A stretch of 64,000 nucleotides of DNA, taken from the NCBI RefSeq assembly GCF_029457495.1, contig NZ_CP120361.1, positions 1,690,001 through 1,754,000 of the forward strand, read 5' to 3'. Below are positions 15,481 through 35,008 of this stretch, one piece after another. The notes under the pieces were generated by a model, which was given only the letters and a program-made list of their open reading frames with translations, made no database searches and was not told the origin of the DNA. Source of the stretch: Chelativorans sp. AA-79. GTDB lineage: Bacteria > Pseudomonadota > Alphaproteobacteria > Rhizobiales > Rhizobiaceae. The translations under genes were made by a program, and so were the position numbers. Position 1 is the stretch's first letter, and each line of letters opens with the position of its first letter.

Positions 15481-15553
15481 GATCGAACCCCGGATGGTGA
15501 GCGGCTATTTGGGCGCGACGCCGCGAACGCGTCGCGTCGGGCGCCGGCTAGTG

Positions 15554-16525: not shown

Positions 16526-16548
16526 TGAGGTTCCTCCCGTTTGGTTTG

Positions 16549-17751
16549 TCAGATCGCGCCGGCATCGCGGAACGCGGCGACTTCTTCCGCCGAGTAGCCG
16601 AGTTCCGCGAGCAGCGCCTCGCTATGCTCGCCCATCCGCGGCGGCGGGCGATCCATCCGCGCGCCGCCATGAGCAAGTTTGAATGCCGCCTTGGGCACTG
16701 TGATCGTGCCGGGAATGCCCGGTTCATCGACAAAGCGATGAAGGATGTCGCGGTGCTCAAGCTGCGGATGAGCAAGGGTTTCCGGCAGGGTCCATATGCG
16801 TGCTGCGGGGATATGGTGCGCCTGGAACCAGTCCTCCCATTGCTGCGCGGTTTTCGTGAGCAGGATGCGCTGCAGGATTTCCCGCTCACGCGCAGCGTCC
16901 GATCGGCGCGCGTCATTGTTGGCCTTGACCAGTTCCGGATGCCCGAGCAGGCGCCAGAAGCGGCGCTGCTGCCGCATATTGATCGCGGCAATCTGGATTT
17001 GGCCATCGGCGGTGTCATAGAGTCCGACGGTCGCGAACTCGTGCCGATTGCCTCCCGCACTGGGATGGCGTCCGGAGCGGCTGTAGTTGGTCAGATGCGC
17101 GCCGAGAAGTATCAAGGCGGTATCGAGCATGGACAAATCGATATATTGCCCTCGCCCGGTCCGTTCGCGCTGCAAAAGGGCTGAAGCGACGGCGAAGGCG
17201 CCCATTGCGCCAGTCGCATAGTCGATTGCCGGCGTGCCGACCTTCATGGGCACCATGTCGGTGGTTCCGTTGACCATCATCAGGCCAGAGACGGCCTGGA
17301 TCACCTGGTCGTAGCCGGTTTGCTTGCCCCGTGGCCCATCCTGTCCGAATGCCGACATGGACGCATAGATCAGGCGGGGATTGATCTCGCGCAGGTCCTC
17401 ATAGCTCAACTCGAGCGCCTTCATGGCGCCGGGCCGGAAATTTTCGACCAGCACATCGGCGGTGCGGACCAAGCGTCGCAGGATCTCGCGACCATCAGGT
17501 GTCTTGAGATTGAGCGTCAGCGAGCGTTTGCCGCCGTTCTGGATGATGAAGTGCGTTCCGATCCTGTCGGACGAGAGCGCGGGGTCGCTGCCGTCGATCC
17601 GGGTCTGGTCGGGCTCTTGCGGGTTTTCGATCCTTATAACATCGGCACCGAACACCGCGAGTTGATAGGTGGCGAACGGCGCGGCAAGGACATGGGTTAT
17701 ATCAAGAACCCTTGTTCCTTCAAAAGGACGCATGGTCCGGCAATCGTCCAT
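16549..17751 (-). CDS. Class III CoA-transferase, CaiB/BaiF family
   Basis: This is 400 residues. The N-terminal motif reads EGTRVLDITHVLAAPFATYQ. It continues with GADVIRIENPQEPDQTR, VLVENFRPGAMKALELSYED, and GTPAIDYATGAMGAFAVASA, whose Asp (about residue 177) matches the catalytic Asp of formyl-CoA transferase. The enzyme moves CoA between carboxylic acids, or less often racemises acyl-CoAs. The start at 17751 has a GAGGAG site 7-9 bases upstream, just after the TctA stop. The position inside a TTT transporter operon points to activation of the imported acid. Confidence 0.92.
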   Translation of the reverse strand: MDDCRTMRPFEGTRVLDITHVLAAPFATYQLAVFGADVIRIENPQEPDQTRIDGSDPALSSDRIGTHFIIQNGGKRSLTLNLKTPDGREILRRLVRTADVLVENFRPGAMKALELSYEDLREINPRLIYASMSAFGQDGPRGKQTGYDQVIQAVSGLMMVNGTTDMVPMKVGTPAIDYATGAMGAFAVASALLQRERTGRGQYIDLSMLDTALILLGAHLTNYSRSGRHPSAGGNRHEFATVGLYDTADGQIQIAAINMRQQRRFWRLLGHPELVKANNDARRSDAAREREILQRILLTKTAQQWEDWFQAHHIPAARIWTLPETLAHPQLEHRDILHRFVDEPGIPGTITVPKAAFKLAHGGARMDRPPPRMGEHSEALLAELGYSAEEVAAFRDAGAI

Positions 17752-17754
17752 GGT

Positions 17755-19257: not shown

Positions 19258-19266
19258 GGCAGCCTC

Positions 19267-19731
19267 CTATCGCAGCCAGTCGCCGACGAGGGGCAGGTTC
19301 AGCCCGAGGCCAAGTTTAAAGATGCCGATGCAAAGCGTTGTGATGGCTGCGGACAAGACGGCAGCCCTGACCAGTGTCATGCCCTTGAGCGCAACCGAAG
19401 AGCAGAAGCAGAGCGTCAGAAGTGCGATTGCCAGGCCTAACGGTCGCATCACCGCGCCGAACAAGATCAGGCCAATCGGAAACAGCGCGATGGCCCGCCA
19501 GGGAATGCTGCGGAGCTTGATCATCGCGCCTTCGGCACGCCAGCCCTTTATCGCGATAAAAATTCCCATAGCGAAGAGGAGCCCGCCGACGAGAGCGGGA
19601 AAGAAGCCCGGTCCCATGCGAAACGCGTTGCCAAGTGCAAGGCCGGCGATGGACGTCGCACAGAACCAGCCGCCGAAAACCGCAAACAGCAGTCCCGAGG
19701 CGATGTCGGCGTTGAGTTTGAGTTTCTGCAT
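19267..19731 (-). CDS. Tripartite tricarboxylate transporter small permease, TctB family
   Basis: This is 154 residues with four helices, ending LGLNLPLVGDWLR. The start is set at the ATG 19731 (MQKLKLNADIASGLLFAVFG). A GTG five codons upstream (19746) is possible, since no good ribosome site precedes the ATG. The perfect 10-base palindrome GTGACGTCAC (19737-19746) covers this region and could be an operator. The gene is first in its operon and is divergent from the mandelate-racemase-like gene. Confidence 0.85.
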   Translation of the reverse strand: MQKLKLNADIASGLLFAVFGGWFCATSIAGLALGNAFRMGPGFFPALVGGLLFAMGIFIAIKGWRAEGAMIKLRSIPWRAIALFPIGLILFGAVMRPLGLAIALLTLCFCSSVALKGMTLVRAAVLSAAITTLCIGIFKLGLGLNLPLVGDWLR

Positions 19732-19931
19732 ATTCAGTGACGTCACCAGTCCGGTTGGTCGTGGTCGATGGGCAGCAACCATAGTCCTCAACCCGGTCTC
19801 CGGAATGCAAATCGAAGATGTGTTCCGTCTGACGAAATGCCCTGATGGCGGGAGACGGATATCTGCAGGAGCACGCCATAGTGGCGCATTCGCCAACAAC
19901 TTCAGCGATCGCCACAGGAGCGAAGCACATC

Positions 19932-21068
19932 ATGAAGATAAGCCGCATAACCTGCAGCGCATTCCGAATGCCTCTCAAGCAAGCGGTTTCATCCAGCCGC
20001 GTGACAATGACTCACCGCGAACTGGTCGTGGTCGAGGTCGAAGTGGACAATGGTGAGATAGGCGTCGGCTGGTGCACGACCGCCGGGGTCGGCGCAGCGG
20101 CGGTGCACGCGCTGATATCCGGGTATCTCGCTCCGATGCTTTTGGGATCGGATCCACGCAACACCGAGCAGATCTGGCAACGGCTGTGGATGGAGTGCCA
20201 TGCGGCCGGTCCGGGCGGGATCACGACGCTGGCTATTTCCGCAATCGATATCGCGATGTGGGATATCAAGGCCAAGAATGCTGGCGAGCCTTTGTACAGG
20301 CTGCTCGGCGGCGCCCGAACCAGTGTCCAGGTCTATGCGAGTGCGATCAATCTGCACCTTTCGATGGAAGACCTGGTGGAACAGGTTCGCGCGCAATCGA
20401 GTGACGGCTATACCGCTTTCAAGATAAAGGTCGGTCGTCCCGGCCTCTATGAAGACCGCGAGCGCTGCCTCGCCATACGCAAGATCATCGGGGACAACGG
20501 TTGTCTGATGCTGGATGCCAATCAGAAGTGGTCGGTCGGTGAAGCGACCCAGCGCATCCGTATCCTGTTGGATGCTGCACCTCTCTTTATCGAGGAGCCG
20601 CTTTTGTCCGACGACGTTGGTGGGCACATGAAGCTTCGCAACGCTACGGGAATGCCGATCGCGGTTGGCGAGCAGCTATGCAACCGGTTCGAGTTCTGGA
20701 ACTATGTCCACGATGGCGCTACCGACTACCTCCAGCCTGATGTCTGGAAGGTCGGGGGGATCACCGAGTTCCTCAAGATCGCAGCGCTAGGCGCCGCCGC
20801 CGGCCTGCCCATTTCCCCCCATGGCGCGATGGAGCTATCCGTCCATCTTGCAGCTGCACTGCCCAATGCGCTGCATGTCGAGAACATTTTTGGACTCAAC
20901 CTTTTCGACTTTGGTGCGACGTCCGGACCCATGGCGATCGCGAACGGAAGGTATGTGCTTGGTTCGGGGCGCGGCCATGGCGTCACCTTCAGCGCTGCGG
21001 CGCTCGAGGAACATAAGTTGTCCTTGGGAGAGGCGATCGAGCGGGAGCCCCTTTACGCCTTCTCCTAG
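19932..21068 (+). CDS. Enolase-superfamily enzyme, mandelate racemase subgroup
   Basis: This is 378 residues from ATG 19932 (MKISRITCSAFRMPLKQAVS). The barrel carries KIK at residues 164-166, DANQKW with Asp195 and Asn197, Glu221 in FIEEPL, Glu247 in VGEQL, Asp270 in LQPDV, His297 in ISPHG and Glu317 in HVENIF. These are the catalytic and Mg2+ residues of mandelate racemase, and even the numbering agrees. The family abstracts the proton next to a carboxylate and either racemises or dehydrates. Neighbouring carboxylate transporters fit an acid substrate. Mandelate itself is only one possibility; sugar-acid or hydroxy-acid dehydratases share the same residues. Confidence 0.93.
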   Translation: MKISRITCSAFRMPLKQAVSSSRVTMTHRELVVVEVEVDNGEIGVGWCTTAGVGAAAVHALISGYLAPMLLGSDPRNTEQIWQRLWMECHAAGPGGITTLAISAIDIAMWDIKAKNAGEPLYRLLGGARTSVQVYASAINLHLSMEDLVEQVRAQSSDGYTAFKIKVGRPGLYEDRERCLAIRKIIGDNGCLMLDANQKWSVGEATQRIRILLDAAPLFIEEPLLSDDVGGHMKLRNATGMPIAVGEQLCNRFEFWNYVHDGATDYLQPDVWKVGGITEFLKIAALGAAAGLPISPHGAMELSVHLAAALPNALHVENIFGLNLFDFGATSGPMAIANGRYVLGSGRGHGVTFSAAALEEHKLSLGEAIEREPLYAFS

Positions 21069-21331
21069 GTCCTGCGAGATTCAGGAATTCACTTCGGCGA
21101 CTTTCGAGTTTGCGCGCATCCAAAGATAAAGCGCGTTTTAGATGTGAGTAGAACGTTTCGTCTCGTGGAACGCGCCGCGTCTCCGGTTCCGCGACCGCAC
21201 GTAAGGTGTTTTGATTTCACTTAAAGAACCAGAAACCAGCCGGAATTGTCGGTGGGTGCCGGGTCGCGGTTCCAAGTCGCCGTTTCCATGAATTCGGAGC
21301 CACTTGGGAGAATAATCAGGGAGGAGAAGTG

Positions 21332-22462
21332 ATGAAGAACCTATCGTCCATCCTTGCACTATCTGCGCTGATGGCGGCACCGGCGTTTGCTGCCGGCGGT
21401 GATGTCAAGCTGCCCGATACGCTTACGTGGACAAGTTTCGATGTGGGCGGAACCGGCTACAACCAATCGATCGCCGTCGGCAAAGCGCTTCAGGATGCCT
21501 ACGGCATTTCGCTGCGCGTAATTGCTGTCAGCAACGACCAGGCGCGTATCGCACCGGTTCGAGAGGGCCGCATTCCATTCGCGCTGGCTGGGAGCGACGT
21601 GTTCTTCGCATTCGAGGGGGTAGAGGCCTATGCTTCACCTGAATGGGGACCGCAAAATCTGCGCGCCATCAACCTGGCGGGGGCCGAAAACTGCGTCAGC
21701 CTAGGCGTGGCGGCCGACGCTGGCATCGACACGCCAGCCGACGTGAAGGGCAAGCGGGTCGGTTGGGTCGTGAGTTCAGGTTCCCTGCAGGCCAACGTCC
21801 GCGCTTTCCTGGCATTCGCTGGTCTGACCACGGATGAGGTGGAATTGGTCGAACTCCCCGGCTATGCCCAGGCCTGGACGGCGATGATCAACGACCAGAT
21901 CGATGCCATGACCGGCGTGACCACCAGCGGCGTTGTCGAGCAGGCGGCCGCCAGCGCCCGCGGCCTGAAATGGCTGGCCTTTCCTCATGACGATCAGGAA
22001 GGCTGGCACCGTCTGCGCGATGTGAACCCGCATTTTTCCAAGCGCGTGGCAACGGTTGGCGCTGCCTTCACCGGCCCGCTTGAGTGCGCGGGCGTCCCTT
22101 ATCCGGATCTGATCACCTACCATGCTGAGGAAGATCTGGTCTACAATCTCACCAAGGCGCTGGATGCGCAGGTCGGCGTCTACTCGAAGGCCGATGCCGG
22201 CACCGCAGGCTATGCGGCGGAAAAGCAGATGTTCGACTGGGTCGTACCGTACCACGAGGGCGCCATCCGCTATTACAAGGAAGCCGGCGTCTGGTCCGAC
22301 GACCTTGAGGCACACACCGAATCCTTGATCGAGCGGGCGGGCGTCCTTGCCGAGGCATGGAAGAAGATGGAAGGCAAAAGCGGCGAAGGCTTTGCCGAGG
22401 AGTGGATGAAGGTCCGCGCCGAAGCGCTCGAAGCGGCCGGTTTGCCGGTCTATTTCCGCTAG
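21332..22462 (+). CDS. TAXI-family TRAP transporter binding protein
   Basis: This is 376 residues from the ATG at 21332, preceded by GGGAGGAGAAG. The signal peptide is MKNLSSILALSALMAAPAFA. The body has the TAXI pattern: TWTSFDVGGTGYNQSIAVGK near the N-terminus, LRVIAVSNDQARIAPVREGR, and VKGKRVGWVVSSGSLQANVR. TAXI proteins feed fused QM permeases with acids such as glutamate or other organic anions. The upstream 263-base region (21069-21331) contains no gene; I saw no clear promoter boxes. The permease gene follows 15 bases later. Confidence 0.93.
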   Translation: MKNLSSILALSALMAAPAFAAGGDVKLPDTLTWTSFDVGGTGYNQSIAVGKALQDAYGISLRVIAVSNDQARIAPVREGRIPFALAGSDVFFAFEGVEAYASPEWGPQNLRAINLAGAENCVSLGVAADAGIDTPADVKGKRVGWVVSSGSLQANVRAFLAFAGLTTDEVELVELPGYAQAWTAMINDQIDAMTGVTTSGVVEQAAASARGLKWLAFPHDDQEGWHRLRDVNPHFSKRVATVGAAFTGPLECAGVPYPDLITYHAEEDLVYNLTKALDAQVGVYSKADAGTAGYAAEKQMFDWVVPYHEGAIRYYKEAGVWSDDLEAHTESLIERAGVLAEAWKKMEGKSGEGFAEEWMKVRAEALEAAGLPVYFR

Positions 22463-22477
22463 ATCCGCTGAATCCAT

Positions 22478-24469
22478 ATGACGGGCCAGATACCCTCCAT
22501 TCCCGACGGGGAGACCGTCCCCGTCAGGAACATCGGCACGGTGGCGCGCTGGGTCACGCGCATCGCCACCATCGCCTTGATTGTCCTGGGCACGAACCAG
22601 ACCTTCAATATCAGCTCCAGGCTCAATTACACGATCATCGAGAACCAGTACCTCTACGGCATTCTGGCGCTTGCCATCCCGATGGTCTTCCTGCTGTTTC
22701 CGCTGCATGGCAAACTGACGGACAGCAAGCCGACCGTGATTGACTGGGCGCTGGCCGCACTTGCCTTCGGGTGCCTCGGCTATTTCGTCTACTACGCATA
22801 TCCGATCGTGCTGTTGGGCTGGGAGATGATCCCGCCGCCTTCCGCCATCGTCATGGGGGCCATCCTCTGGGGGTTGATCATCGAGGCCGGGCGCCGCACC
22901 GGCGGAATCATTCTCGCCTGCATCGTGGCCTTTTTCTCCTTCTATCCGTTGTTCGCGGACAAGATGCCGGGTCCCATTTCGGCATTCTCGTCCCCGTTCT
23001 CCTTCGCCGCGGCCTACCATTCGATGAGCCTGGAGAGCATCCTCGGCATTCCGCTCAAGGCCTTTGCCAATCTGGTGTTCGGGTTCATCATTTTCGGCGC
23101 GGCGCTCGAACATACCGGCGCAGGCCGGTTCTTCATCAATCTCGCCTTCGCGCTTCTGGGGCATGTACGTGGCGGCCCGGCCAAGGTCGCCATTGTATCG
23201 AGCGGCCTGATGGGATCGCTCAGCGGCTCGGTCGTCACCAATGTGATGACCACCGGTGTGATGACCATTCCCGCCATGCGGCGCTCCGGCATGAAGGGCG
23301 TCACCGCCGCGGGGATCGAAACCTGCGCTTCCACCGGTGGCGTGCTGATGCCGCCGGTGATGGGTGCGGCCGCCTTCGTCATGGCCCATTTTCTACAGAC
23401 GCCTTATGCCAATATCGCGATCGCGGCGGCCGTTCCTGCGTTCCTCTATTTCTTCGGTCTGTTCATCCAGATCGATGCGCGTGCCGCCCGCGATGGGCTC
23501 AAGGGTATGCCCGATGACGAGCTGCCTGAGCTCAGGCAAACGCTCAAGGAAGGCTGGCACCACATCTTTGCCATCGTGCTCCTGGTATTCATGCTCCTCG
23601 TGATGCGGCGGGAGTCGCTGGCGCCGTTCTACGCGACCCTGGTCCTGTTGGCGATCAATCAGATTTTTTCAAGGACCAATCGCTGGGGCAAAGCGGAAGT
23701 CCTGGCATTCCTCGACAGTCTGGCCAGGCTCTTCGCCATCCTTGCCGCTACGCTTGGTGCGGTCGGCATGATCGTGGGCGGTTTGTCTATGACCGGCCTC
23801 GCCGGCACGTTGGTCAACGACCTGTTGTTCATCGCCGGCGGCTCACCCTACCTGCTGCTGCTCATGGGCGCCGTCACCAGCCTGATCCTCGGCGTGGGGA
23901 TGACAGCCACGGCTTGCTATATCTTCCTGGCCATTATGCTAGCGCCGGCACTTATCCAAGTCGGTCTCGACCCACTCGCCGTGCACCTGTTCATCTTCTA
24001 CTGGGGCATGCTGAGCTTCATCACGCCGCCTGTGGCGCTCGGCGCCTTTGCCGCCGCGTCCGTTGCCAACACACCGCCCATGCGAACCGGTTTCGAGTCC
24101 ATGCGGATCGGCTCCGTGATCTACTTCATCCCGTTCTTCTTCGTCTTCGATCCCGGGCTTATTCTGGTCGGTGAATGGCAGAACATCGTGTTCTCCATCG
24201 TACTAGCGCTGTTCGGGGTCTTCGTCTTCGCGTGCGCCATCCAGGGCTACATGGCGGGTATCGGCCCGCTGTTTTCCCGGAACGCATTGGGCACCCTGCT
24301 TCGACTGCCGATCCTGGTGGGCGCGGTGCTGATCGCGCTCCCGGGCGAGGCCATTCCGAACTGGAGCGACACCGATCTCCTGATAATCGGCCTGGTGCTG
24401 ATCGTGCCGGTCCTGGCCATGGCGTATTTCCTGAACACGCGAGCGCGGGCAACGGTGGCAACAATATGA
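22478..24469 (+). CDS. TRAP transporter fused permease (DctQM, 4TM/12TM type)
   Basis: This is 663 residues. The first about 190 residues hold four helices corresponding to DctQ. The remainder is a DctM-like body with SGLMGSLSGSVVTNVMTTGV, GIETCASTGGVLMPPVMGAA, VGMTATACYIFLAIMLAPAL and YWGMLSFITPPVALGAFAAA. This architecture pairs with TAXI binding proteins such as the one encoded just upstream. It is an inner-membrane, gradient-driven importer of an organic acid. Confidence 0.95.
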   Translation: MTGQIPSIPDGETVPVRNIGTVARWVTRIATIALIVLGTNQTFNISSRLNYTIIENQYLYGILALAIPMVFLLFPLHGKLTDSKPTVIDWALAALAFGCLGYFVYYAYPIVLLGWEMIPPPSAIVMGAILWGLIIEAGRRTGGIILACIVAFFSFYPLFADKMPGPISAFSSPFSFAAAYHSMSLESILGIPLKAFANLVFGFIIFGAALEHTGAGRFFINLAFALLGHVRGGPAKVAIVSSGLMGSLSGSVVTNVMTTGVMTIPAMRRSGMKGVTAAGIETCASTGGVLMPPVMGAAAFVMAHFLQTPYANIAIAAAVPAFLYFFGLFIQIDARAARDGLKGMPDDELPELRQTLKEGWHHIFAIVLLVFMLLVMRRESLAPFYATLVLLAINQIFSRTNRWGKAEVLAFLDSLARLFAILAATLGAVGMIVGGLSMTGLAGTLVNDLLFIAGGSPYLLLLMGAVTSLILGVGMTATACYIFLAIMLAPALIQVGLDPLAVHLFIFYWGMLSFITPPVALGAFAAASVANTPPMRTGFESMRIGSVIYFIPFFFVFDPGLILVGEWQNIVFSIVLALFGVFVFACAIQGYMAGIGPLFSRNALGTLLRLPILVGAVLIALPGEAIPNWSDTDLLIIGLVLIVPVLAMAYFLNTRARATVATI

Positions 24470-25391: not shown

Positions 25392-25559
25392 CGTGAAGCG
25401 TGCTCTCCGGATTGACAGGCTATTTGCCACTGGGTTCGGCAGGATATGAAGATGCGATCCGGAACGTTTTATTAGGCGGAATGCACCGCCGGCGAGAATT
25501 GACAGAACTTCGCCCATCCGGGTCTTCTGTCCGCGAGCCACCGGTGGAGAAAATTGCAG

Positions 25560-26180
25560 ATGGCACCCGAACTCGAGAAACGAGTTGCACGAATGGCCGA
25601 CCGCGAGGAAATTCGCGATCTCGTCAGCAGGGAGCGGTTTGCGCGCGATCAGGGGCATTGGGATGTGATGGCCGAGTGCTTCCATCCGGACGCCCATATC
25701 CGCACGAGCTGGTATGATGGCAATGGCGTGGACTATATCTCGGCGACAAAGAAGCTTCTGGAAATGGCGCCGGGCAGCAAGCATTGGGTGTTTCCCGGTT
25801 TCGTGCAGATCAACGGAGACAGGGCGACGGTCGAAAGCCCCGGATTGATCATGAACCGCGCTGTGCTGGAAGGCGTGGAGGTCGACTACCAGATCTTTTG
25901 CAGATACCAGTCCCGTGTCGAGCGGCGGGAAGGTGTGTGGCGCCTCCTCACCTTTGAAGTGATCTTCGAACGTGACGTCATGAGAACCGTCGATCCGTCC
26001 AAGCCGCTGCCGATCGACTGGGACCGTCTGGCGACTTACAGGCCGACCTATCGCTTTCTTGCCTATCTGCAGGATCGTAGGGGCTTCGATCTCAGCAACG
26101 ATCTGCTGGGAGACGATCGGCCGGAAGCGCTGCAGAAGTTCCACGAAGGCGAAAGCCGCTGGCTTCACCAACTGGATTAG
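25560..26180 (+). CDS. NTF2-like (SnoaL-type) fold protein
   Basis: This is 206 residues. ADREEIRDLVSRERFARDQG and DVMAECFHPDAHIRTSWYDG match the start of NTF2/SnoaL-like proteins, a cone fold used for isomerases, dehydratases and dioxygenase small subunits. The start is ATG 25560; a TTG at 25554 with closer spacing to GGAG (25546-25549) is an alternative. It is divergent from the LigI-like gene, with a 168-base gap. No catalytic residues can be assigned. The role is unknown, presumably in the same catabolic route. Confidence 0.7.
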   Translation: MAPELEKRVARMADREEIRDLVSRERFARDQGHWDVMAECFHPDAHIRTSWYDGNGVDYISATKKLLEMAPGSKHWVFPGFVQINGDRATVESPGLIMNRAVLEGVEVDYQIFCRYQSRVERREGVWRLLTFEVIFERDVMRTVDPSKPLPIDWDRLATYRPTYRFLAYLQDRRGFDLSNDLLGDDRPEALQKFHEGESRWLHQLD

Positions 26181-26352
26181 GTTCTTGCACGCGGGTGCGC
26201 AGCCTGCGCATCCCACTGCTGCACACCCTCGATCAAGAGGCTTGAGCCACGTCAGTCTTTGTTTCGCTGCACGGAATGTTGCAGCCATAGGTTTGTCGTG
26301 TGGCGAGCGTCGGCGTAGTGCAGGGTGGTAGTTCGCGGGAGGAAGGGCGACA

Positions 26353-27222
26353 GTGGCGATCACCTACCAGGTCATCAGGCAGGCAGCCCACGACCTCTAC
26401 GGCTGGTCGCTCAAGAAGGTGCCGGATGACACGCAGAAAGCTCTGGCCGAAGCGGAGAAGAACGAGACCGGCGAAGCGTCACGGAAGACACTCCAATTCA
26501 TGCAGGCCGCTGCCCGCGCGGCCGAGACACAAGATCGCCACGCCTGTTCCGATGCCGGTTTCCCGACCTATTTCGTGAAGATCGGGACGAAGCTGACTCT
26601 CGACGGCGACATTCGCCGCGCATTCGTTGACGGTTTCGCGGACCTGGTGGAAACCGTCGAGCCGCCGATCCTGAAGTTCATCACGCATCCCCTGACCTTG
26701 GAGCGCAGCTACGAGGGCAAGGATATGCCCATCCTCTCCTTCGACGTGATCGACGGCGCGGACTACATGGAGATCACGTGCTCGCCCAAGGCGCTGGGAT
26801 CGGGCCGCTGGGCCGACCTGAAGGTTTTCAGCTATCCCAAGATCGCCGAGATCGAAGCCTATTTCATGGATTGCGTGCTAAAGGCAGGCTCGCAGCATTG
26901 CCCACCGGTCATCATCGGTATGGGCATCGGCGGATCGTTCGATCACGCCGCTAAAATGGCCAAGCTGGCGACCTTGCGGAAGATCGGCACGAAGCATTCT
27001 GATCCGATGATCGCGGCGATGGAGGAACGGCTGCTTGCGGCTGTCAACAAGACCGGATTCGGGCCGATGGGTACGGGGGGAGACACGACGGCGCTGGCCG
27101 TGCACGTGGACTATGCCCACGGCCACGGCTTCGTTCCCGTGGCGGTGTGCTTCAACTGCTGGATCAATCGGCGCACGGCGCTGCGCATCGATAACGATGG
27201 AAAGGTGACGAGGCTTGAGTAG
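26353..27222 (+). CDS. Class I fumarate hydratase-type/tartrate dehydratase alpha subunit
   Basis: This is 289 residues from a GTG start preceded by GGGAGGAAGGG. It matches the N-terminal (iron-sulfur) domain of class I fumarases and L-tartrate dehydratase. Conserved Cys at about residues 65 (HACSDAG), 183 (QHCPPVIIG) and 269 (CFNCWINRR) are the expected ligands of an oxygen-sensitive 4Fe-4S cluster. The GIGGSFDHAAKMAKLA and FGPMGTGGDTTALAVHVDYA motifs are also present. It adds or removes water from a dicarboxylic acid. The beta subunit overlaps by 8 bases. Substrate may be fumarate, tartrate or another unsaturated diacid from the neighbouring pathway. Confidence 0.92.
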   Translation: MAITYQVIRQAAHDLYGWSLKKVPDDTQKALAEAEKNETGEASRKTLQFMQAAARAAETQDRHACSDAGFPTYFVKIGTKLTLDGDIRRAFVDGFADLVETVEPPILKFITHPLTLERSYEGKDMPILSFDVIDGADYMEITCSPKALGSGRWADLKVFSYPKIAEIEAYFMDCVLKAGSQHCPPVIIGMGIGGSFDHAAKMAKLATLRKIGTKHSDPMIAAMEERLLAAVNKTGFGPMGTGGDTTALAVHVDYAHGHGFVPVAVCFNCWINRRTALRIDNDGKVTRLE

Positions 27223-28325: not shown

Positions 28326-29084
28326 TCAGAGGTGCCGCCCTTCGTCGACATTGATGACGATCCCGGTGCTGCTGGTCAGATCGACGATGCCGGCGACGAT
28401 CGCCCGGGCGACATCGTCGGGAGAGGTGACCTTCCGCAACGGCATCGCCCCGGCCATGGCCTCGAGCTGCTCTCGCGTGCGGCCGGCGACGAATTTCGTG
28501 TCCACCCCTGCCGGCGAGACCGAGATGACACGGATACGCGGCGCCAGGACTCTCGCCAGACCGATGGTGAGCGTGTCCAGCCCGCCCTTCGCCGCGCAAT
28601 AGGCGAGATTGCTGCCGACCCCTTTCTGCGCCGAGAGCGATGACACGTTGACTATGGCGGCGTTCTCGCCTTTTTCCAGCAGCGGCCGCATGGCGCGGAT
28701 GACGGCGAACGGCCCGCGCAGATTCACGATCACGATCCGGTCGAAGATCTCGTCGGTGAGTTTGTCGAGCTCGTTCAGCGGTATGGTCTGGCTGCTGCCG
28801 CCGCTGTTGACCAGCGCATCCAGCTTGCCGTAGCGTCTTCCGATGGCCTCCGCGGCGTCGCAGACGCATCGGGTGTCGTCGATGGCGATGCGCAGGGCCA
28901 TGTGACCGCTGCCAGCCATCTGTGCGATCAGCGCATCCGCGTCGTCCTTGCTGCTGTGATAGCCGACGACGACCCGTGTCCCGCGTGCCGCCAGCCTGAG
29001 TGCGGTGGCGCGTCCGATGCCGCTGCTCCCGCCGGTGACGAGAGCGACGTCGGGATATCCGGTCGGCTCAGTCTGCTGGGCCAC
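28326..29084 (-). CDS. Short-chain dehydrogenase/reductase, FabG-like
   Basis: This is 252 residues with the cofactor loop TGGSSGIG (residues 18-25), NSGG, SSLSAQ and catalytic YCAAK. The C-terminus STGIVINVDEGRHL is FabG-like. It is the last gene of the minus-strand operon 34124-28326 and overlaps the acyl-CoA ligase gene by 17 bases. It converges with the MaoC gene at 28322, only 3 bases apart. It probably oxidises a 3-hydroxyacyl-CoA formed by the MaoC protein of the same operon. Confidence 0.9.
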   Translation of the reverse strand: MAQQTEPTGYPDVALVTGGSSGIGRATALRLAARGTRVVVGYHSSKDDADALIAQMAGSGHMALRIAIDDTRCVCDAAEAIGRRYGKLDALVNSGGSSQTIPLNELDKLTDEIFDRIVIVNLRGPFAVIRAMRPLLEKGENAAIVNVSSLSAQKGVGSNLAYCAAKGGLDTLTIGLARVLAPRIRVISVSPAGVDTKFVAGRTREQLEAMAGAMPLRKVTSPDDVARAIVAGIVDLTSSTGIVINVDEGRHL

Positions 29085-30621
29085 TGGCGTCCCCCCAATA
29101 GGGCTTCTTGAGTTCCTGTTTCAGGACCTTGCCGACGGCTGACCGCGGCAGTTCGCCCCGCAGTTCGATCCGCGAGACCCGCTGCATCTTGCCGAGACGC
29201 GCATTGACCCATTCGCGTATCTGGGCGGGTTCGATCCGTGCGCCCGGCCTGGCGACCACAACTCCGAGCGGGGTCTCGCCCCACTTCTCATTCGGTATCG
29301 CGATCACCACGGCATCCTCGATATCGGGATGCTCGCGCAGTTTCTCCTCGATGTCGGAGGCATAGATGTTGAAGCCGCCCGATATGATGACGTCCTTCTT
29401 GCGGTCGACCAGCGTCAGGAACCCGTCTTCGTCGAAGACGCCGATATCGCCCGTGCGGTGATAAAGGACGCCGTCCTTGTTGCGCCAGTAGAAGGCCTCG
29501 TCCGCGGCCGGGTTGCGAAAATAGCCGGACATCATCATCGCCGAACGGCCGATGACCTCGCCCCGCTCGCCGACCGGCACGTCGTAGCCCTCTTCGTCCA
29601 CGACCCGGATCTCGTTGCCGGGGGCCGGCTTGCCGACCGTGTGCGCCTTGTCTGGATGGGCCGTCACGTCCAGCATGCAGGTGCACCCGCCCTCGGTCAG
29701 CCCATACACTTCGATGAAGCGGCCCGGCCATTCCTGGGCTACGCGTAGTTTGTCGGTAGCGGGCAGGGGAGCGCCGGTGCTTTGTTTCACCCGGAAATGC
29801 GTAAGGTTCCGGCCGGCGAAGCTGTCGGCCGAGAGAATGCGTTGATACTGCACGGGAACCAACATGGTATGGGTTGCCGCGTATTTCTCCGCGAGGTCAA
29901 GATAGCCCTCGGCGTCGAATTTTTGCATCATGACGACGCGACCCCCGTGCAACAGCGTCATCAGCAGTGGCATCAGCGTCGTGTTGGAATAAAGCGGCGT
30001 CGCCAGAAGCATCGTGCTGAAGGGATCGAGGTCAAATACACCGCGTGACGCTTGGCGGTAGCGCATGGCATGCGAATGGACGATGCCCTTGGCCGTTCCG
30101 GTGGTGCCGGAACTGTAGATGATATTGAACGCGTTTTCCGGCGGCACCTGCCGCGGTGCCGGCAGTGGGTGCGATCCCGCGACGAAATCGTTGAGTTCAC
30201 CCGCCTCGCGATCCGGGCGAACCGTCACGATCTCCGGTGAGATGAACGGCTTCAGGGCCCCGAGATATTTGCCGTCGGCAAAGATGAGGCCAGGCGCGCA
30301 GTTGCCGATCATGCCGGCGAGGGCTTCGGGATGTGCCGACGTCTGCAGGGGGACGGCGCATTGGCCGGCGGCGATCACCGCGAGATAGGCCGTCACCAGC
30401 CCGATGCTCACGTCGCCGAGCAGGACCACACGATCGCCGGTCGATCCGGTTGCGGCAATCGCTCCTGCCATGGCCAGCGTTTCCGTGCGCAATTGCCTCC
30501 AGCTTCCTTGGGCATCGCCGCAGATCAAGGCGATGTCGTCGGGACGCTCGGCGGCATGCGCTAGAATGCCGTCGATCACCCGTCCGTCCTCATCCCTGTT
30601 CGGCGCAATAGCGAGGTTCAT
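29068..30621 (-). CDS. AMP-forming acyl-CoA ligase
   Basis: This is 517 residues. The full motif set is present: P-loop IIYSSGTTGTAKGIVHSH, YGLTEGGC, YHRTGDIGVFDEDG, VDRKKDVIISGGFNIYASDI, and the catalytic Lys in PRSAVGKVLKQEL. It activates a carboxylic acid to its CoA ester with ATP. It starts in an ATGA overlap with the MaoC gene stop, so the two are translationally coupled. The closest groups are long/medium-chain and aromatic acid ligases; specificity cannot be read from sequence alone. Confidence 0.94.
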   Translation of the reverse strand: MNLAIAPNRDEDGRVIDGILAHAAERPDDIALICGDAQGSWRQLRTETLAMAGAIAATGSTGDRVVLLGDVSIGLVTAYLAVIAAGQCAVPLQTSAHPEALAGMIGNCAPGLIFADGKYLGALKPFISPEIVTVRPDREAGELNDFVAGSHPLPAPRQVPPENAFNIIYSSGTTGTAKGIVHSHAMRYRQASRGVFDLDPFSTMLLATPLYSNTTLMPLLMTLLHGGRVVMMQKFDAEGYLDLAEKYAATHTMLVPVQYQRILSADSFAGRNLTHFRVKQSTGAPLPATDKLRVAQEWPGRFIEVYGLTEGGCTCMLDVTAHPDKAHTVGKPAPGNEIRVVDEEGYDVPVGERGEVIGRSAMMMSGYFRNPAADEAFYWRNKDGVLYHRTGDIGVFDEDGFLTLVDRKKDVIISGGFNIYASDIEEKLREHPDIEDAVVIAIPNEKWGETPLGVVVARPGARIEPAQIREWVNARLGKMQRVSRIELRGELPRSAVGKVLKQELKKPYWGDASGPAD

Positions 30622-31079
30622 GGATTCTCGATCAACAGAATATGCCGGGCGACAAGGGCGGGTTTCTCCCTCCCTTCGATCTCGATTTCCTCGTCGAATT
30701 CGAGCCGCGTGCCGACCGCATGCGCGGCCGCGCGCGCCAGCGACTGCCTGAGGCGGATATGGCTGCCCACGGGAACGGGTGCCACGAAGCGTAAACGGTC
30801 ATAGCCGTAGTTGAGGCCTCTTCCGCGTTTGCGGATGGCATAGATTTCACGCTGCAGGACCGGGACGAGCGAAAGCAGATAAAGGCCGTGCGCGATCGTG
30901 CGGCCCTCGGGCATCTCGCCGCGTGCGCGCTCGACATCGACGTGGATCCAGTGATCGTCGCCCGAAAGTCTGGCAAAATCGTCGATGGCCCGCTGGGTCA
31001 CCGCGATCCACCCGGAGGTCCCGAGAACCTGGCCGACATAGGCCTTGAGCTCCAGGGCGTGTTCGACCGTGAGCGTCAT
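30618..31079 (-). CDS. MaoC-like acyl dehydratase
   Basis: This is 153 residues from ATG 31079, which overlaps the reductase stop as ATGA; a GTG two codons upstream is also possible. The hydratase block reads DDFARLSGDDHWIHVDVERA, with the Asp/His dyad, then TIAHGLYLLSLVPVL. It hydrates an enoyl-CoA ester. It sits between a zinc-less MDR reductase and an acyl-CoA ligase, so a beta-oxidation-like sequence on an unusual acid is likely. Confidence 0.9.
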   Translation of the reverse strand: MTLTVEHALELKAYVGQVLGTSGWIAVTQRAIDDFARLSGDDHWIHVDVERARGEMPEGRTIAHGLYLLSLVPVLQREIYAIRKRGRGLNYGYDRLRFVAPVPVGSHIRLRQSLARAAAHAVGTRLEFDEEIEIEGREKPALVARHILLIENP

Positions 31080-32107
31080 GTGCACCCCCCGTTGCGCGCG
31101 GAACCCGGGCGCGTTTCAGCCAGCGACGTGTCGACGGCCAGCACCACTTTTCCGATCTGCTCGTTGCGGTCCAGAATGCCGTGCGCCTTGCGAACCTCCT
31201 CGAAAGGCAGGATCGCGTGGATGCGGTTCACGATGCGCCGGGCTTCGAGCAGTGGCCAGACCTCCCTGACCAGCGCCTCGGCCAGCCTGCCCTTGTATGC
31301 GGGAGGCTGCGGCCGGATAGTGGAACCCGAAAGGCTCAGCCGGCGCCGCACGATCTTGCGGATGTTCACCTCGGCCGTTTCGTCCTGGTGGCTGGCGATG
31401 AACACCAGACGGCCGTCGGCGTTCAGAAGATCGAGCTGTCTTTGCGTATAGGGTCCCGCCTGCGCATCGAGTATGACGTCGACGCCCTTGCCCGCCGTCA
31501 GCCTCAGGATTTCCTTGTCCCAATCGCCACGATAATCGACCGCCGCCTGTGCGCCCATCTCCAGGCAGATCCGGCGCTTCTCGTCCGTGCCGGCGGTGGC
31601 ATAGACGGTGGCGCGGCGAAGCTGCCGCGCGATCTGGATGGCGGCCATGCCGACTCCGCTGGTGCCGCCCTGGACGAGGAGGGACTCGCCTTCCGCCAGG
31701 CGCCCGCCCCAGATGACGTTGTTCCACGCGGTGAAGAAGGCTTCGGGCAGAGCGGCGGCTTCGGCGAAGGTGCACCCGGCCGGCACGGGCATGCACTGCA
31801 CCGCCGGAACGACGCAGAATTCGGCATAGCCGCCGCCATTGGTCAGCGCGCACACCGCATCGCCGACGGCGATGCCGCTCACCTCCGCGCCGACCGCATC
31901 GACGATGCCAGAGACGTCGAGACCGGGTATGGGTGACGCATCGGGCGGCGGCGGATAGAGCCCCCGTCGCTGCTGGATGTCGGGCCGGTTCACGCTGGCG
32001 GCGATCACGCGGATCACGACATCCGCCGGTCCCGGTTGCGGCTTCGGCTGTTCGGCGAGATGCAGGACCTCCGGGCCGCCTGCGCCACGGATTTCGACGA
32101 CGCGCAT
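31076..32107 (-). CDS. NAD(P)H:quinone oxidoreductase-like MDR protein
   Basis: This is 343 residues from ATG 32107 (MRVVEIRGAGGPEVLHLAEQ). It has a GroES-like N-terminal domain, VNRPDIQQRRGLYPPPPDAS, PGLDVSGIVDAVGAEV, then the nucleotide site LVQGGTSGVGMAAIQIARQL. No zinc ligands are visible, which fits the quinone-reductase/enoyl-reductase branch (PIG3-like). Such enzymes reduce quinones or the double bond of enones. Within this operon an enoyl-type reduction is a reasonable guess. It starts 35 bases after the FAH-family stop. Confidence 0.9.
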   Translation of the reverse strand: MRVVEIRGAGGPEVLHLAEQPKPQPGPADVVIRVIAASVNRPDIQQRRGLYPPPPDASPIPGLDVSGIVDAVGAEVSGIAVGDAVCALTNGGGYAEFCVVPAVQCMPVPAGCTFAEAAALPEAFFTAWNNVIWGGRLAEGESLLVQGGTSGVGMAAIQIARQLRRATVYATAGTDEKRRICLEMGAQAAVDYRGDWDKEILRLTAGKGVDVILDAQAGPYTQRQLDLLNADGRLVFIASHQDETAEVNIRKIVRRRLSLSGSTIRPQPPAYKGRLAEALVREVWPLLEARRIVNRIHAILPFEEVRKAHGILDRNEQIGKVVLAVDTSLAETRPGSARNGGCT

Positions 32108-32142
32108 CGATTCACCTCTCTTGGGAAACAGCCCGCATCGCA

Positions 32143-33129
32143 CTAGGCCTCCCAGTCGTGCACGACAGGATTTGACAGCCGGCCCAATCCTTCCACTTCG
32201 ATGTCGAGCCTCCCGCTGAGCTTGTGCAGATTGACCGACCGGTGTCCGTTGGGAAAGTTTCCGATGCCTTTTGCCGAAGTTCCGAAACAGATAACGTCTC
32301 CAGGCTCGAGGGTGAAGTAGCGACTGGCTTCCGCAACCACCTCTTCGACCTTGAAGCGGTAGCTCGAGGTGGAGTCGACGGCAAAAGGTTCGCCGTCGAA
32401 CCAACCCTTCACTTCGAGATTGTTTGGATCTGAAACCTCGTCCGCCGTCGTCAGCCATGGTCCCATCGGCCCGAAGGTGTCCGTCGCCTTGGAACGGGTA
32501 TGATAGACGAAATAAACGTCGCGATCGTCGTCGCCATGGCGCCGCCGCCACGCCAGATGGTGGGGACGGAGCAAGTTCGGTTCGCGGGTGGTGGCGATCG
32601 AATCCATGCCGAATTTCATGCCATGAGACGTGACGTCGTTGATGATGGAATAGCCGAAAATGGCCTTGCGCGCCTCTGACACGTCGATTTTCCGGCACTT
32701 CTTGCCGATCACGGCGGCAAGCTCCAGTTCGGGGATGGTCTCGCCGTAATGCTCTTCCATGACGATCGGCTTGTTGTGGCCGGTCAGACAGGACGGGGCT
32801 TTCAGGAAGAAGTTGGGCACGCCCGGGTCCACATGCGCCGATTTGCGGATGCCCATGTTGTTGAAGGCGACGCCCAGGATCTTCGAGGGGCGGTTCTGCG
32901 GGGCGAGCCAGTCGAGGGATTCAGGGTCGAGCGGCGCGGCCTCGCCCCTGCGAAGAGCCTCCTCCACCCGCGCACGTTCGTCCGCCCCGCCTTCGATCAG
33001 ATCCTGCATCGTGCGTGGCGCTTCGCCGAGATCCGCGCTTTCACACAGTTCGGACAGGAGCAGGGCCGAATTGCCTTTTTTGACGACCAGTGCGGGTTTG
33101 CCCTGCCGGCTTATGGTGCCAAGTTTCAT
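32143..33129 (-). CDS. Fumarylacetoacetate hydrolase (FAH) family protein
   Basis: This is 328 residues from ATG 33129 (MKLGTISRQGKPALVVKKGN). The FAH core shows KILGVAFNNMGIRKSAH, the metal-binding acids in GETIPELELAAVIGKKCRKI, and FGYSIINDVTSH. The end reads GDVICFGTSAKGIG. FAH-family enzymes cleave C-C bonds of acylpyruvates, or hydrate, decarboxylate or isomerise similar 2-oxo diacids with Mg2+. It is the second gene of the operon, 65 bases after the DUF6282-type gene. Substrate unknown. Confidence 0.9.
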   Translation of the reverse strand: MKLGTISRQGKPALVVKKGNSALLLSELCESADLGEAPRTMQDLIEGGADERARVEEALRRGEAAPLDPESLDWLAPQNRPSKILGVAFNNMGIRKSAHVDPGVPNFFLKAPSCLTGHNKPIVMEEHYGETIPELELAAVIGKKCRKIDVSEARKAIFGYSIINDVTSHGMKFGMDSIATTREPNLLRPHHLAWRRRHGDDDRDVYFVYHTRSKATDTFGPMGPWLTTADEVSDPNNLEVKGWFDGEPFAVDSTSSYRFKVEEVVAEASRYFTLEPGDVICFGTSAKGIGNFPNGHRSVNLHKLSGRLDIEVEGLGRLSNPVVHDWEA

Positions 33130-33194
33130 GTCGTCTCCTCTGACCTGGAACCGGCGCCGGCCGAGGCCGTCCGGTCGATGCCGCTGCGGCGGTA

Positions 33195-34124
33195 TTAGGC
33201 GATGCCGACGAGTTTCGCCGGATTGTCTCGTATCATCACGCGCACGTCGTCTTCGGAGAAGCCGAGCGCCAGGCACAGTTTCACGGCCTGCCTGAGGCCT
33301 TCGACGGGGGAGGGGTTGTCTACCTGTCCAAGGTCGGAGCCGATCGAGGAATGCGTCACGCCCGCCGCCTCGATGTGTTCCCTGAGTTCTCCCGGCGCAA
33401 AAACGTTGAAGCGGCAATCCACGTAAAGGCAGGCGGACTGCTCTATCAGGGCCCCGAATTCCGCGAGCTCACGGATATCCTCGTAAGTGAAATGCAGCCC
33501 GTACATCGGATGGTTGACCAGCAGGCGCTTGACACCGCGTTTCTTCGCCTCGGTGAAAAGGGTCCATATCTCCGAAATGTGCAGATGTCCCGAGGACAGG
33601 ATGGCGTCGAACTCGGCAATGGAATCGAGGATCTCCTTGACGACGTCGAGAAGTTCCCCATACGCGTCGACCACCGTGATGCCCGGTGACTTCTTCAGTT
33701 GAACGTTCGATGCAAGACGCGTCTTTCGGTGCGAGCTTCGGATGTGGTTCGCCGATTGCGCCGTGGGCATCCAGATGAGCTTGGCGCCCATCTTGAGTTG
33801 GGCGTCCACGACGAAGGGATTTAGCCCGCCGGTGGAGTTGTTCAGCACGAGCCCGCCGAACATCGCCACATTGTGATGGCCCAGCACGCGGTTCATTATC
33901 GGCAGAAAAGGAGCGACCGAATAGTGGTGATCCTTGAACAGGATGCCCCGCATGCCGGTTGCGGCCGCCTGTTCCACCGCTTCGAAATGGTCCAGCTGCC
34001 GGGGCATTGTCGAGGGTCCGGAATGGACGTGGAGATCGACCGCGCCCTGCAGCAGCTCGTCAACGATCGCATCGTCGATGTTCGCGATCAACGCGCGAAC
34101 CTCGGCGCGGTTCTTTTCAGACAT
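33195..34124 (-). CDS. DUF6282-type metal-dependent hydrolase
   Basis: This is 309 residues. It looks like a PHP/amidohydrolase-like barrel: AVDLHVHSGPSTMPRQLDHF with an HxH metal pair, ILFKDHHYSV, RLLVNHPMYGLHF, and SSIGSDLGQVDNPSP with a late Asp. I recall this pattern as DUF6282; members have no established substrate. It heads the minus-strand operon and is divergent from the IclR gene. A lactonase or amidase step feeding the FAH-family enzyme would fit, but that is inference. Confidence 0.75.
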   Translation of the reverse strand: MSEKNRAEVRALIANIDDAIVDELLQGAVDLHVHSGPSTMPRQLDHFEAVEQAAATGMRGILFKDHHYSVAPFLPIMNRVLGHHNVAMFGGLVLNNSTGGLNPFVVDAQLKMGAKLIWMPTAQSANHIRSSHRKTRLASNVQLKKSPGITVVDAYGELLDVVKEILDSIAEFDAILSSGHLHISEIWTLFTEAKKRGVKRLLVNHPMYGLHFTYEDIRELAEFGALIEQSACLYVDCRFNVFAPGELREHIEAAGVTHSSIGSDLGQVDNPSPVEGLRQAVKLCLALGFSEDDVRVMIRDNPAKLVGIA

Positions 34125-34168: not shown

Positions 34169-34220
34169 TTGACGGCTCGCGGCCACAATGTATCTAGCTG
34201 GCATGTTCCATCTGGCGGAA
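34169..34220 (+). promoter_or_regulatory. Promoter and inverted repeat before the IclR-type gene
   Basis: A sigma70-like pair, TTGACG (34169-34174) and TATCTA (34191-34196), is spaced by 16 bases. Downstream, TTCC-N7-GGAA (34206-34220) forms an inverted repeat just before the ribosome site GAGGAGGAG. Its position suggests autorepression. On the minus strand TTGTGG-N18-TAATTC could serve the divergent operon. Confidence 0.45.
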
Positions 34221-34231
34221 TGAGGAGGAGC

Positions 34232-35008
34232 ATGGGGGTCAGATCGGTCCAACGTGCGCTTGCCGTGTTGCAGGAACTGAACCTGCAGCCTTACACCTCG
34301 ATCGCGCGGCTGCATGCGCGTACGGGCTTGCCCAAGCCGACACTGGTGCGCCTCCTCAGGACGCTCGAAGAAGCCGGTTTCGTGGAGAACGATCAGCGGC
34401 TCGGCGGCTATCAGGTGAGCGCGTTGGTGAGCTCCCTGAGCTCCGGATTCCACAAGGAACCCATGGTCGTGGAGGCCGGGCGGCCCTGGGCCATCGCCGT
34501 GACGCGCAAGCACCAATGGCCGGTATCGATTTCGCTCCTCGACAGGGATGCCGTTGTCGTACGGTTCTCTACTGTGCCGGACAGCGCGATCTCACCGTTC
34601 CATGCCACCGTGAACATGCGGTTGCCGCTCATCACCCGCGGCATGGGGCTGGCCTACCTTGCCTTTACCTGCGAGCCGGAATTCGAGCTGATCGTGGACA
34701 TGCTGCGGGCATCGGACGACCCCGAGCACGCCCTGGCGCATCATTCGCGCGAGCTAAGGCGGCTCGTGGAACATGTCAGATCCGTGGGCTATGCAACACG
34801 TGCTCCGCATGTTGAGCCGAAAAATTCCAATACGATAGCCGTGCCGATCTTCGGCAGCGACAACAAGGTGAAAGCCAGTCTCGGGCTGACTTACTTCACC
34901 TCCGCCTTTAAATCCCAGGAGGAGGCCTGCGCGCGCTATGCGCCTGTTCTCAAGGCCGCAGCCTCCGAAATATCGCAAGACCTCGCTCGGCTCAATCGGG
35001 CGCCCTGA
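34232..35008 (+). CDS. IclR-family regulator
   Basis: This is 258 residues from ATG 34232 (MGVRSVQRALAVLQELNLQP) after a strong GAGGAGGAG site. The winged helix-turn-helix spans about residues 3-65 (IARLHARTGLPKPTLVRLLR). The C-terminal effector domain (about 80-255) includes TRGMGLAYLAF, VRSVGYATRAP and SNTIAVPIFGSDN. It is divergent from the six-gene acyl-CoA operon and is its probable regulator; members often sense aromatic or short-chain acids. Its 3' end overlaps the convergent phosphodiesterase-like gene by 73 bases. Confidence 0.93.
   Translation: MGVRSVQRALAVLQELNLQPYTSIARLHARTGLPKPTLVRLLRTLEEAGFVENDQRLGGYQVSALVSSLSSGFHKEPMVVEAGRPWAIAVTRKHQWPVSISLLDRDAVVVRFSTVPDSAISPFHATVNMRLPLITRGMGLAYLAFTCEPEFELIVDMLRASDDPEHALAHHSRELRRLVEHVRSVGYATRAPHVEPKNSNTIAVPIFGSDNKVKASLGLTYFTSAFKSQEEACARYAPVLKAAASEISQDLARLNRAP

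What the first reader, a model, noticed from the sequence alone, without database searches (positions are those of the whole stretch)
28326..33195. Six-gene coupled operon for an unidentified CoA-linked acid degradation
From 34124 down to 28326 the minus strand carries DUF6282-type hydrolase, FAH-family enzyme, zinc-less MDR reductase, MaoC hydratase, AMP-forming ligase and FabG-like SDR. Three junctions overlap (ATGA, ATGA, 17 bases). An IclR gene is divergent. The order suggests hydrolysis, cleavage or hydration of an oxo-acid, CoA activation, reduction, hydration and oxidation. I know of no described pathway with this set, and the DUF6282 protein has no assigned reaction.
Basis: partly seen in the sequence, partly recalled or inferred. 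Interest (0 to 1): 0.8.

Follow-up and report, generated by a model that had tools for sequence, protein, structure and literature searches.

The report
Modular acid-degradation regulon, substrate unknown
The six genes are one part of a larger, conserved and interchangeable set of genes that soil and marine bacteria probably use to take up and break down some still unidentified organic acid, all apparently switched by one regulator.

Summary
In detail: six same-strand genes (DUF6282, FAH-family, PIG3-type reductase, MaoC, AMP ligase, SDR) with overlaps ATGA, ATGA and 17 nt and a divergent IclR gene. The order is not private: 11 further loci keep it, 3 of them with one inserted transporter gene. 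The reading as one linear six-step CoA pathway is only partly supported. A 17-bp palindrome upstream of DUF6282, defined on 41 loci, recurs at 5 further places in the window, so the likely unit is a regulon at about 9.5-35.0 kb with acid transporters, FumA-type hydratase, second MaoC, PrpD and other genes. Comparison splits the operon in two. DUF6282 and the reductase pair with either this FAH or an HpaI aldolase, usually plus an unnamed bicupin, never both in one locus (60 loci: 17, 39, 0 both, 4 neither; 7 switches on a tree of 51). MaoC and ligase form a separate, sometimes unlinked or absent unit. The FAH subfamily keeps its metal ligands but 0 of 120 homologues has the usual His-Glu dyad. 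I matched no characterised pathway; the substrate stays unknown.

The parts
33195..34124 (-). DUF6282 protein, predicted metal-dependent TIM-barrel hydrolase of the amidohydrolase superfamily; core module
   Evidence: PF19799 3.6e-72; AlphaFold2 pLDDT 93.6; structural matches to amidohydrolases; H32,H34,K64,H66,H180,H182,H205,D264 invariant in 72 sequences
32143..33129 (-). FAH-family protein lacking the usual His-Glu dyad, with an insert; core module
   Evidence: PF01557; alignments
31076..32107 (-). PIG3-type MDR (quinone oxidoreductase-like) reductase; core module
   Evidence: TIGR02824 above cut-off; start
30618..31079 (-). MaoC1 hydratase; CoA module
   Evidence: PF01575; ATGA overlaps
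29068..30621 (-). AMP-forming acyl-CoA ligase; CoA module
   Evidence: PF00501/PF13193
28326..29084 (-). FabG-like SDR; CoA module
   Evidence: PF00106/PF13561; 17-nt overlap with ligase
34232..35008 (+). IclR-family regulator, divergent
   Evidence: PF09339, PF01614; an orthologue in the stretch in 49 of 51 loci
34205..34221 (.). putative IclR operator between IclR and DUF6282 (one of the 41 defining sites)
   Evidence: score 18.5; 17.9 with the window left out of the matrix
26261..26277 (.). putative operator upstream of FumA-alpha
   Evidence: score 18.0
21155..21171 (.). putative operator upstream of the TAXI/TRAP transporter
   Evidence: score 18.0
19822..19838 (.). putative operator between the divergent TctB and enolase-superfamily genes
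   Evidence: score 23.1
14233..14249 (.). putative operator upstream of TctB/TctA
   Evidence: score 17.0 rounded, just under the 17 threshold
9491..9507 (.). putative operator upstream of TctC and MmgE/PrpD
   Evidence: score 22.4
25466..25482 (.). weak operator-like site between the lactonase-like and SnoaL genes
   Evidence: score 13.3, no better than the best site of the reversed window, 13.6
26353..27222 (+). class I fumarase/tartrate dehydratase alpha subunit
   Evidence: PF05681, TIGR00722
27215..27889 (+). class I fumarase/tartrate dehydratase beta subunit
   Evidence: PF05683
27867..28322 (+). MaoC2 hydratase (start by reading)
   Evidence: PF01575; present in 15 of 16 ligase loci, none of 35 others
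25554..26180 (+). SnoaL-like protein
   Evidence: PF13577
24531..25391 (-). lactonase-like amidohydrolase (LigI/4-sulfomuconolactone hydrolase relative; start by reading)
   Evidence: PF04909; NF042924 228.7 bits, cut-off 500; PDB 4d8l 9.4e-66
21329..24469 (+). TAXI solute-binding protein and fused TRAP permease
   Evidence: TIGR02122, TIGR02123 above cut-offs
19932..21068 (+). enolase-superfamily dehydratase/cycloisomerase-like protein (start by reading)
   Evidence: PF13378/PF02746; TalGalacDh 268.8 bits, cut-off 500
12155..19731 (-). TctA, TctB, Ldh2-family dehydrogenase, TctC, class III CoA-transferase, TctA, TctB (seven genes)
   Evidence: ORFs; PF02615, PF02515; the Tct names are by reading and similarity to clusters, not by a family search
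9586..12039 (+). TctC-like binding protein (name by reading; no NCBIfam match) and MmgE/PrpD protein
   Evidence: ORFs; PF03972/PF19305

Best explanation
The six genes are one transcription unit of an IclR-controlled carboxylate-catabolism regulon of about 25 kb, made of exchangeable modules. Core module: an organic acid brought in by Tct or TAXI/TRAP transporters is hydrolysed or hydrated by the metal-dependent DUF6282 enzyme, reduced by the PIG3-type reductase, and cut at a carbon-carbon bond next to a 2-oxo group by the dyad-less FAH enzyme; relatives make the same cut with a bicupin (C5) plus an HpaI-family aldolase. Accessory module: a released or parallel acid is made a CoA thioester by the ligase, hydrated by MaoC1/MaoC2 and oxidised by the SDR, as in beta-oxidation. 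Shown by computation: gene content, order, exchange pattern, the shared palindrome. Inferred: that IclR binds it, every reaction, and the substrate class. My split of confidence: regulon and modularity about 0.85; FAH and HpaI+C5 doing the same step about 0.6; this order of chemistry about 0.35.
For: Operator: a palindrome (consensus GTTTCG-N5-CGAAAC) was found within about 170 nt upstream of DUF6282 in the 41 loci used (40 score 16.6 or more, L038 13.5). In the window 5 sites score >=17, 4 of them not used to define it, against 0.17 on average and at most 1 in 100 Markov simulations; 8 score >=14.5 against 0.53, at most 3; scores hold with the window left out of the matrix. In the 40 loci L009-L048 86 sites score >=16, about 48 beyond the defining ones, against 1-5 in six simulated sets. 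Whole genome: 28 matches to a pattern that I wrote to cover the window's sites, 6 of them within 24.7 kb of the window; backwards control 13. In relatives the site precedes HpaI, C5, BKACE, FumA, Ldh2, ALDH, IorA, QOR, lactonase-like and transporter genes and, in G219, an unlinked MaoC1-ligase pair (score 18.4). Exchange: in 51 loci FAH 14, HpaI 34, both 0, neither 3; 7 switches on the DUF6282 tree, and in 6 independent pairs HpaI goes the opposite way in 5.4 on average, does not differ in 0.6, never the same way. In 9 loci fetched afterwards: FAH 3, HpaI 5, both 0, neither 1. L009 and L011 have DUF6282 proteins identical at 298 of 309 positions, yet L009 has HpaI+C5 and L011 FAH. MaoC1 is present in 16 of 16 ligase loci and 0 of 35 others. 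Transporters in the cluster.
Against: No reaction, substrate or protein-DNA contact is demonstrated. The independent-pair sign test is modest (median p 0.0625, range 0.03-0.125). An ALDH lies in 4 of the 14 FAH loci (L010, L012, L013, L046) and in L113, which is unexpected if FAH yields an acid directly. Ligase and BKACE never share a locus (16 and 21 of 51), but that is one change on the tree, and genome G013 holds both, in separate islands. FAH genomes G000, G015, G219 and G312 also carry C5 paralogues of 40-47% identity elsewhere, so exclusion is per cluster, not per genome. Window sites at 45856 and 47871 (14.8, 15.0) lie outside the cluster and the site before the lactonase-like gene is weak (13.3). 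L038 and L121 show no convincing site at DUF6282, L067 and L093 only one at IclR. The Markov control does not model coding sequence. The lost dyad argues against ordinary FAH hydrolysis.
Confidence: 0.55

Rival explanations
1. One linear CoA pathway: all six enzymes act in sequence on one substrate that is activated to a CoA thioester.
For: Translational overlaps tie reductase, MaoC, ligase and SDR; the full order persists in 11 other loci, 3 with an inserted TRAP gene.
Against: DUF6282-FAH-reductase without ligase or MaoC in L068, L092, L094, with no ligase orthologue at E<=1e-90 in G163; ligase-MaoC1 unlinked in G219; 21 of 51 loci have DUF6282, SDR and BKACE but no ligase (reductase also present in 20 of these 21).
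Confidence: 0.15
2. FAH and HpaI act on the same 2-oxo-3-deoxy or 4-hydroxy-2-oxo acid but by different chemistry: FAH is a dehydratase (like the FAH-superfamily 2-keto-3-deoxyarabinonate dehydratase, recalled) and HpaI a retro-aldolase, so two different lower routes follow, as in the Weimberg and Dahms pathways (recalled).
For: Loss of the dyad in 120 of 120 listed homologues; ALDH genes in both FAH and HpaI clusters; HpaI scores best to 2-dehydro-3-deoxyglucarate aldolase models, below cut-off, and structures.
Against: No 2-keto-3-deoxyarabinonate dehydratase was among the 23 PDB sequence matches; ligase and MaoC have no role in those pathways (recalled).
Confidence: 0.2
3. FAH and HpaI+C5 are not equivalent: clusters of two different pathways share DUF6282, reductase and regulator, and the exclusion reflects different substrates.
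For: The own genome and others hold paralogous DUF6282 or FAH islands of both kinds; transporters differ between loci.
Against: Switch between DUF6282 proteins 96% identical (L009, L011), 7 switches in which one mostly replaces the other, and both under the same palindrome.
Confidence: 0.2
4. A reductive ring-opening pathway for a hydroxylated aromatic or pyrone acid, similar in plan to phloroglucinol degradation (recalled): reductase, metal hydrolase, dehydrogenase, BKACE or CoA cleavage.
For: The same set of enzyme types; BKACE scores 220.4 bits to the 3,5-dioxohexanoate model, cut-off 430, though higher (266.7, cut-off 382) to a lysine-fermentation model; a LigI-related gene in the window.
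Against: Those models do not reach their cut-offs; FAH, HpaI and acid transporters are not explained.
Confidence: 0.1

Closest known systems
FAH superfamily (PF01557), e.g. maleylpyruvate hydrolase 6jvv, HpaG 1gtt, L-2,4-diketo-3-deoxyrhamnonate hydrolase 8gsr
   Same: Domain family and metal ligands E134, E136, D165 (numbering of the window protein)
   Different: At the two dyad places 0 of 120 homologues have His and 0 of 120 Glu, while 6jvv and 8gsr show them in the alignments; insert with invariant H190, H191, W194, R195, D201, D202; best NCBIfam scores about 107 bits against cut-offs of 276 and 500
Amidohydrolase superfamily (renal dipeptidase, dihydroorotase, NagA, LigY, 2,6-dihydroxybenzoate decarboxylase)
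   Different: 9-16% identity in those rows, no specific match above the tied group; I found no reaction assigned to PF19799
HpaI/GarL aldolases and BKACE enzymes of related clusters
   Same: Neighbours under the same palindrome in relatives
   Different: Below equivalog cut-offs; not in this operon
IclR-family regulators, PRK09834 group (MhpR-like, name recalled)
   Same: 240.6 bits for NF007342, cut-off 251
   Different: Below cut-off; palindrome defined here, binding untested

Membership tests
FAH superfamily | PF01557 domain | tested here: met
   1e-42
FAH superfamily | metal ligands E-x-E and D | tested here: met
   E134, E136, D165 invariant in 9 orthologues; the two Glu in 118 and 120 of 120 homologues
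FAH hydrolases | His-Glu dyad of the lid (its role recalled from FAHD1 and relatives) | tested here: not met
   Met and Arg in the window protein; first place M 63, R 23, K 22, V 6, other 6, His 0 of 120; second place R 101, M 18, T 1, Glu 0 of 120
Amidohydrolase superfamily | TIM-barrel fold | tested here: met
Amidohydrolase superfamily | HxH plus further His/Asp metal ligands | tested here: met
   invariant positions in 72 sequences; their geometry in the model was not measured
ANL acyl-CoA ligases | AMP-binding and C-terminal domains | tested here: met
   PF00501, PF13193
ANL acyl-CoA ligases | substrate acid | not testable with these tools
   no equivalog cut-off among the 25 models shown; best PDB matches FadD5, malonyl-CoA synthetase
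CoA beta-oxidation operon | thiolase or acyl-CoA dehydrogenase in the unit | tested here: not met
   none among the six genes or the three convergent genes; elsewhere in the genome not tested
IclR regulators | HTH and IclR C-terminal domains | tested here: met
   PF09339, PF01614
IclR regulon | regulator binds the shared operator | not testable with these tools
   palindrome conservation only
4-hydroxyphenylacetate (Hpa) pathway | HpaG/HpaI/HpaE equivalog scores | tested here: not met
   HpaG 106.6/276.4, HpaI 110.9/368.8, HpaE 440/638, bits/cut-off; the last two on proteins of relatives

The most novel reading that the evidence does not exclude
An undescribed catabolic pathway whose central carbon-carbon cut is made either by a dyad-less FAH enzyme of a new catalytic type or by an unnamed bicupin plus HpaI aldolase, two unrelated solutions repeatedly exchanged under one IclR regulator, acting on an organic acid that no described pathway covers; DUF6282 would gain its first reaction.
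Probability: 0.3. Interest if true: 0.7.

Novelty: new variant of a known kind. Interest (0 to 1): 0.5.

Why it matters
It turns a vague 'unknown operon' into a bounded, testable unit: one regulator, a defined operator, a short list of genes, and a clear swap test (FAH against HpaI+C5). It would give a first reaction to DUF6282 and to an unnamed bicupin family, and would show that a dyad-less FAH subfamily does different chemistry from its annotation.

Tried and rejected
Literature: seven searches (DUF6282, PF19799 and combinations of neighbour names) listed no paper; no paper was read. Most subscription papers are not held, so this does not show that nothing is in print. One search failed on a disallowed term and was reworded.

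I dropped the claim that ligase and BKACE are equivalent: one change on the tree and both in genome G013. ALDH and IorA never share a locus (15 and 11 of 51; 3 changes); IorA scores best to aldehyde-oxidoreductase-type models, below cut-off; this only hints at an aldehyde.

Distant DUF6282 contexts do not all carry an aldolase: none is annotated in the stretches of Novosphingobium, Alicyclobacillus, Natrinema and Priestia, and none was matched in L096 and L098. The Neorhizobium plasmid stretch has no annotation.

L070, L071, L078-L084, L090 and L096-L098, L100-L102 were read for context but not put into the 51-locus table (DUF6282 mostly below about 50% identity or a different island). Of the 9 later loci L114 shares 7.8 kb at up to 95% identity with L014, and L028 resembles L029 in the same way; L119 and L120 are of the same genus as L073. 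So Fisher values overstate independence. Presence thresholds were set by me per gene; presence was read from the listed identities.


Full report
What is there. The six genes, their strand, order and the three overlaps are as described, with refined starts for FAH (33129), reductase (32107), MaoC1 (31079) and IclR (34232). Pfam and NCBIfam confirm the families. Among the six only the PIG3-type reductase model (TIGR02824), a subfamily model, reaches its curated cut-off; no equivalog cut-off is reached in the rows shown. Convergent to the operon lie FumA-alpha, FumA-beta and a second MaoC (26353-28322), ending 3 nt from the SDR stop.

Conservation. A scan of genome contigs with DUF6282 gave 40 loci. 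The complete order DUF6282-FAH-reductase-MaoC1-ligase-SDR is found in 11 loci besides the window: L011-L015, L091, L113, L114 without an insert and L010, L046, L112 with a TRAP permease gene between DUF6282 and FAH. L114 resembles L014 at up to 95% DNA identity over 7.8 kb. The system is patchy: 14 of 397 genomes sampled in the order at E<=1e-75, 21 of 394 in the family at E<=1e-110, 1 of 385 in the class at E<=1e-110, namely the own genome; each count includes the own genome. It can be mobile: Mameliella alba carries a version with HpaI instead of FAH on a plasmid typed as conjugative.

Regulon. Within about 170 nt upstream of DUF6282 a 17-bp palindrome was found in the 41 loci used to define it; 40 of them score 16.6 or more, one (L038) 13.5. 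In L041 the IclR gene is not next to DUF6282. Scanning the window gives the sites listed under parts; 5 reach 17 (4 of them not used to define the site), while 100 Markov simulations of the window gave 0.17 on average and at most 1; the reversed window gave 13.6 at best. Leaving the window out of the matrix changes little. In the 40 loci L009-L048 86 sites reach 16, about 48 of them beyond the defining ones; six simulated sets gave 1 to 5. Genome-wide there are 28 matches to a pattern written to cover the window's sites, 6 of them between window positions 9491 and 34221; the backwards control gives 13. In relatives the site stands before HpaI, C5, BKACE, ALDH, FumA, Ldh2, QOR, IorA, lactonase-like and transporter genes. 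In G219 MaoC1-ligase lies on another contig, with a site scoring 18.4 about 80 bp upstream of MaoC1. This ties the units together better than adjacency does. IclR binding is inferred.

Modules. In 51 loci FAH occurs in 14, HpaI in 34, both in none, neither in 3: L031 is a 4.3-kb contig that has C5, L041 is cut 2.2 kb after DUF6282, and the genome of L047 (G013) has C5, BKACE and HpaI in another island and no FAH at E<=1e-40. C5 is present in 32 of 34 HpaI loci. On the DUF6282 tree FAH and HpaI switch 7 times; in 6 independent pairs HpaI goes the opposite way in 5.4 on average and does not differ in 0.6 (sign test median p 0.0625, range 0.03-0.125, so the independent evidence is modest). Nine loci fetched afterwards gave FAH 3, HpaI 5, both 0, neither 1 (L121, which has a distant FAH of 33%); 8 of the 9 have a site at DUF6282. 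MaoC1 is present with 16 of 16 ligases and MaoC2 with 15 of 16. The SDR was seen without ligase or BKACE only in L020, a cut contig; ligase without SDR in L016, L038, L041, L042.

Enzymes. DUF6282 is predicted with high confidence as an amidohydrolase-type TIM barrel with conserved metal-ligand-like residues. The FAH subfamily keeps its metal ligands but 0 of the 120 listed homologues has His or Glu at the two dyad places, and the nine orthologues aligned share an insert with invariant residues. That the dyad is needed in known hydrolases is recalled, not tested. C5, without Pfam or NCBIfam match, is a predicted bicupin.

Mechanism. In more distant relatives DUF6282 stands beside an HpaI-type aldolase gene, with SSADH or C5 near by, in plasmids of Agrobacterium, Paracoccus, Roseateles, Gemmobacter, Microvirga and Leisingera; in four still more distant ones no aldolase is annotated. 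I therefore place DUF6282 before the C-C cut. The reductase and the cut complete the core; ligase, MaoC1, MaoC2 and SDR form a beta-oxidation-like accessory. The order of the chemistry is inference (about 0.35).

Limits. Orthology was called by tblastn identity thresholds set by me; loci are related and mostly about 20 kb, so absence can mean distance. No experiment supports any reaction. The most useful outcome is the bounded regulon and the FAH/HpaI+C5 exchange, both directly testable.

Noticed in passing
own genome G000:C1:3787000-3810000 (L090, L105): A second island with three DUF6282 genes, C5, HpaI, several Tct-like transporter genes and an IclR 40% identical to the window's, with five palindromes of a variant type (TTTCA-N5-TGAAA).
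   Followed up: partly
own genome G000:C1:3661300-3668500 (L106): A second FAH (64-65% identical) with an IclR gene, a protein resembling flavin reductases by eye, a half-cupin related to C5 and Tct-like genes, with palindromes at 3663752 and 3668493.
   Followed up: partly
window 34936-35008: The phosphodiesterase-like ORF 34936-36540 (-) overlaps the 3' end of IclR by 73 nt.
   Followed up: no
window 37027-44371: By reading, an alpha-L-arabinofuranosidase-like gene with peptide/oligosaccharide-type ABC transporter genes; no site of 13 or more in this stretch among the top window sites listed.
   Followed up: no
L083 (Natrinema plasmid): A distant DUF6282 gene stands beside a BenE transporter, AMP ligases and xanthine-dehydrogenase-type genes, suggesting other substrates for the family.
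   Followed up: no
G092:C1:332500-334017: The ligase orthologue match is reported with one internal TGA.
   Followed up: no
L122 and L024: L122 has two C5 hits (72% and 92%) in a row; L024 has a second, truncated DUF6282 at its edge next to an HpaI homologue.
   Followed up: no
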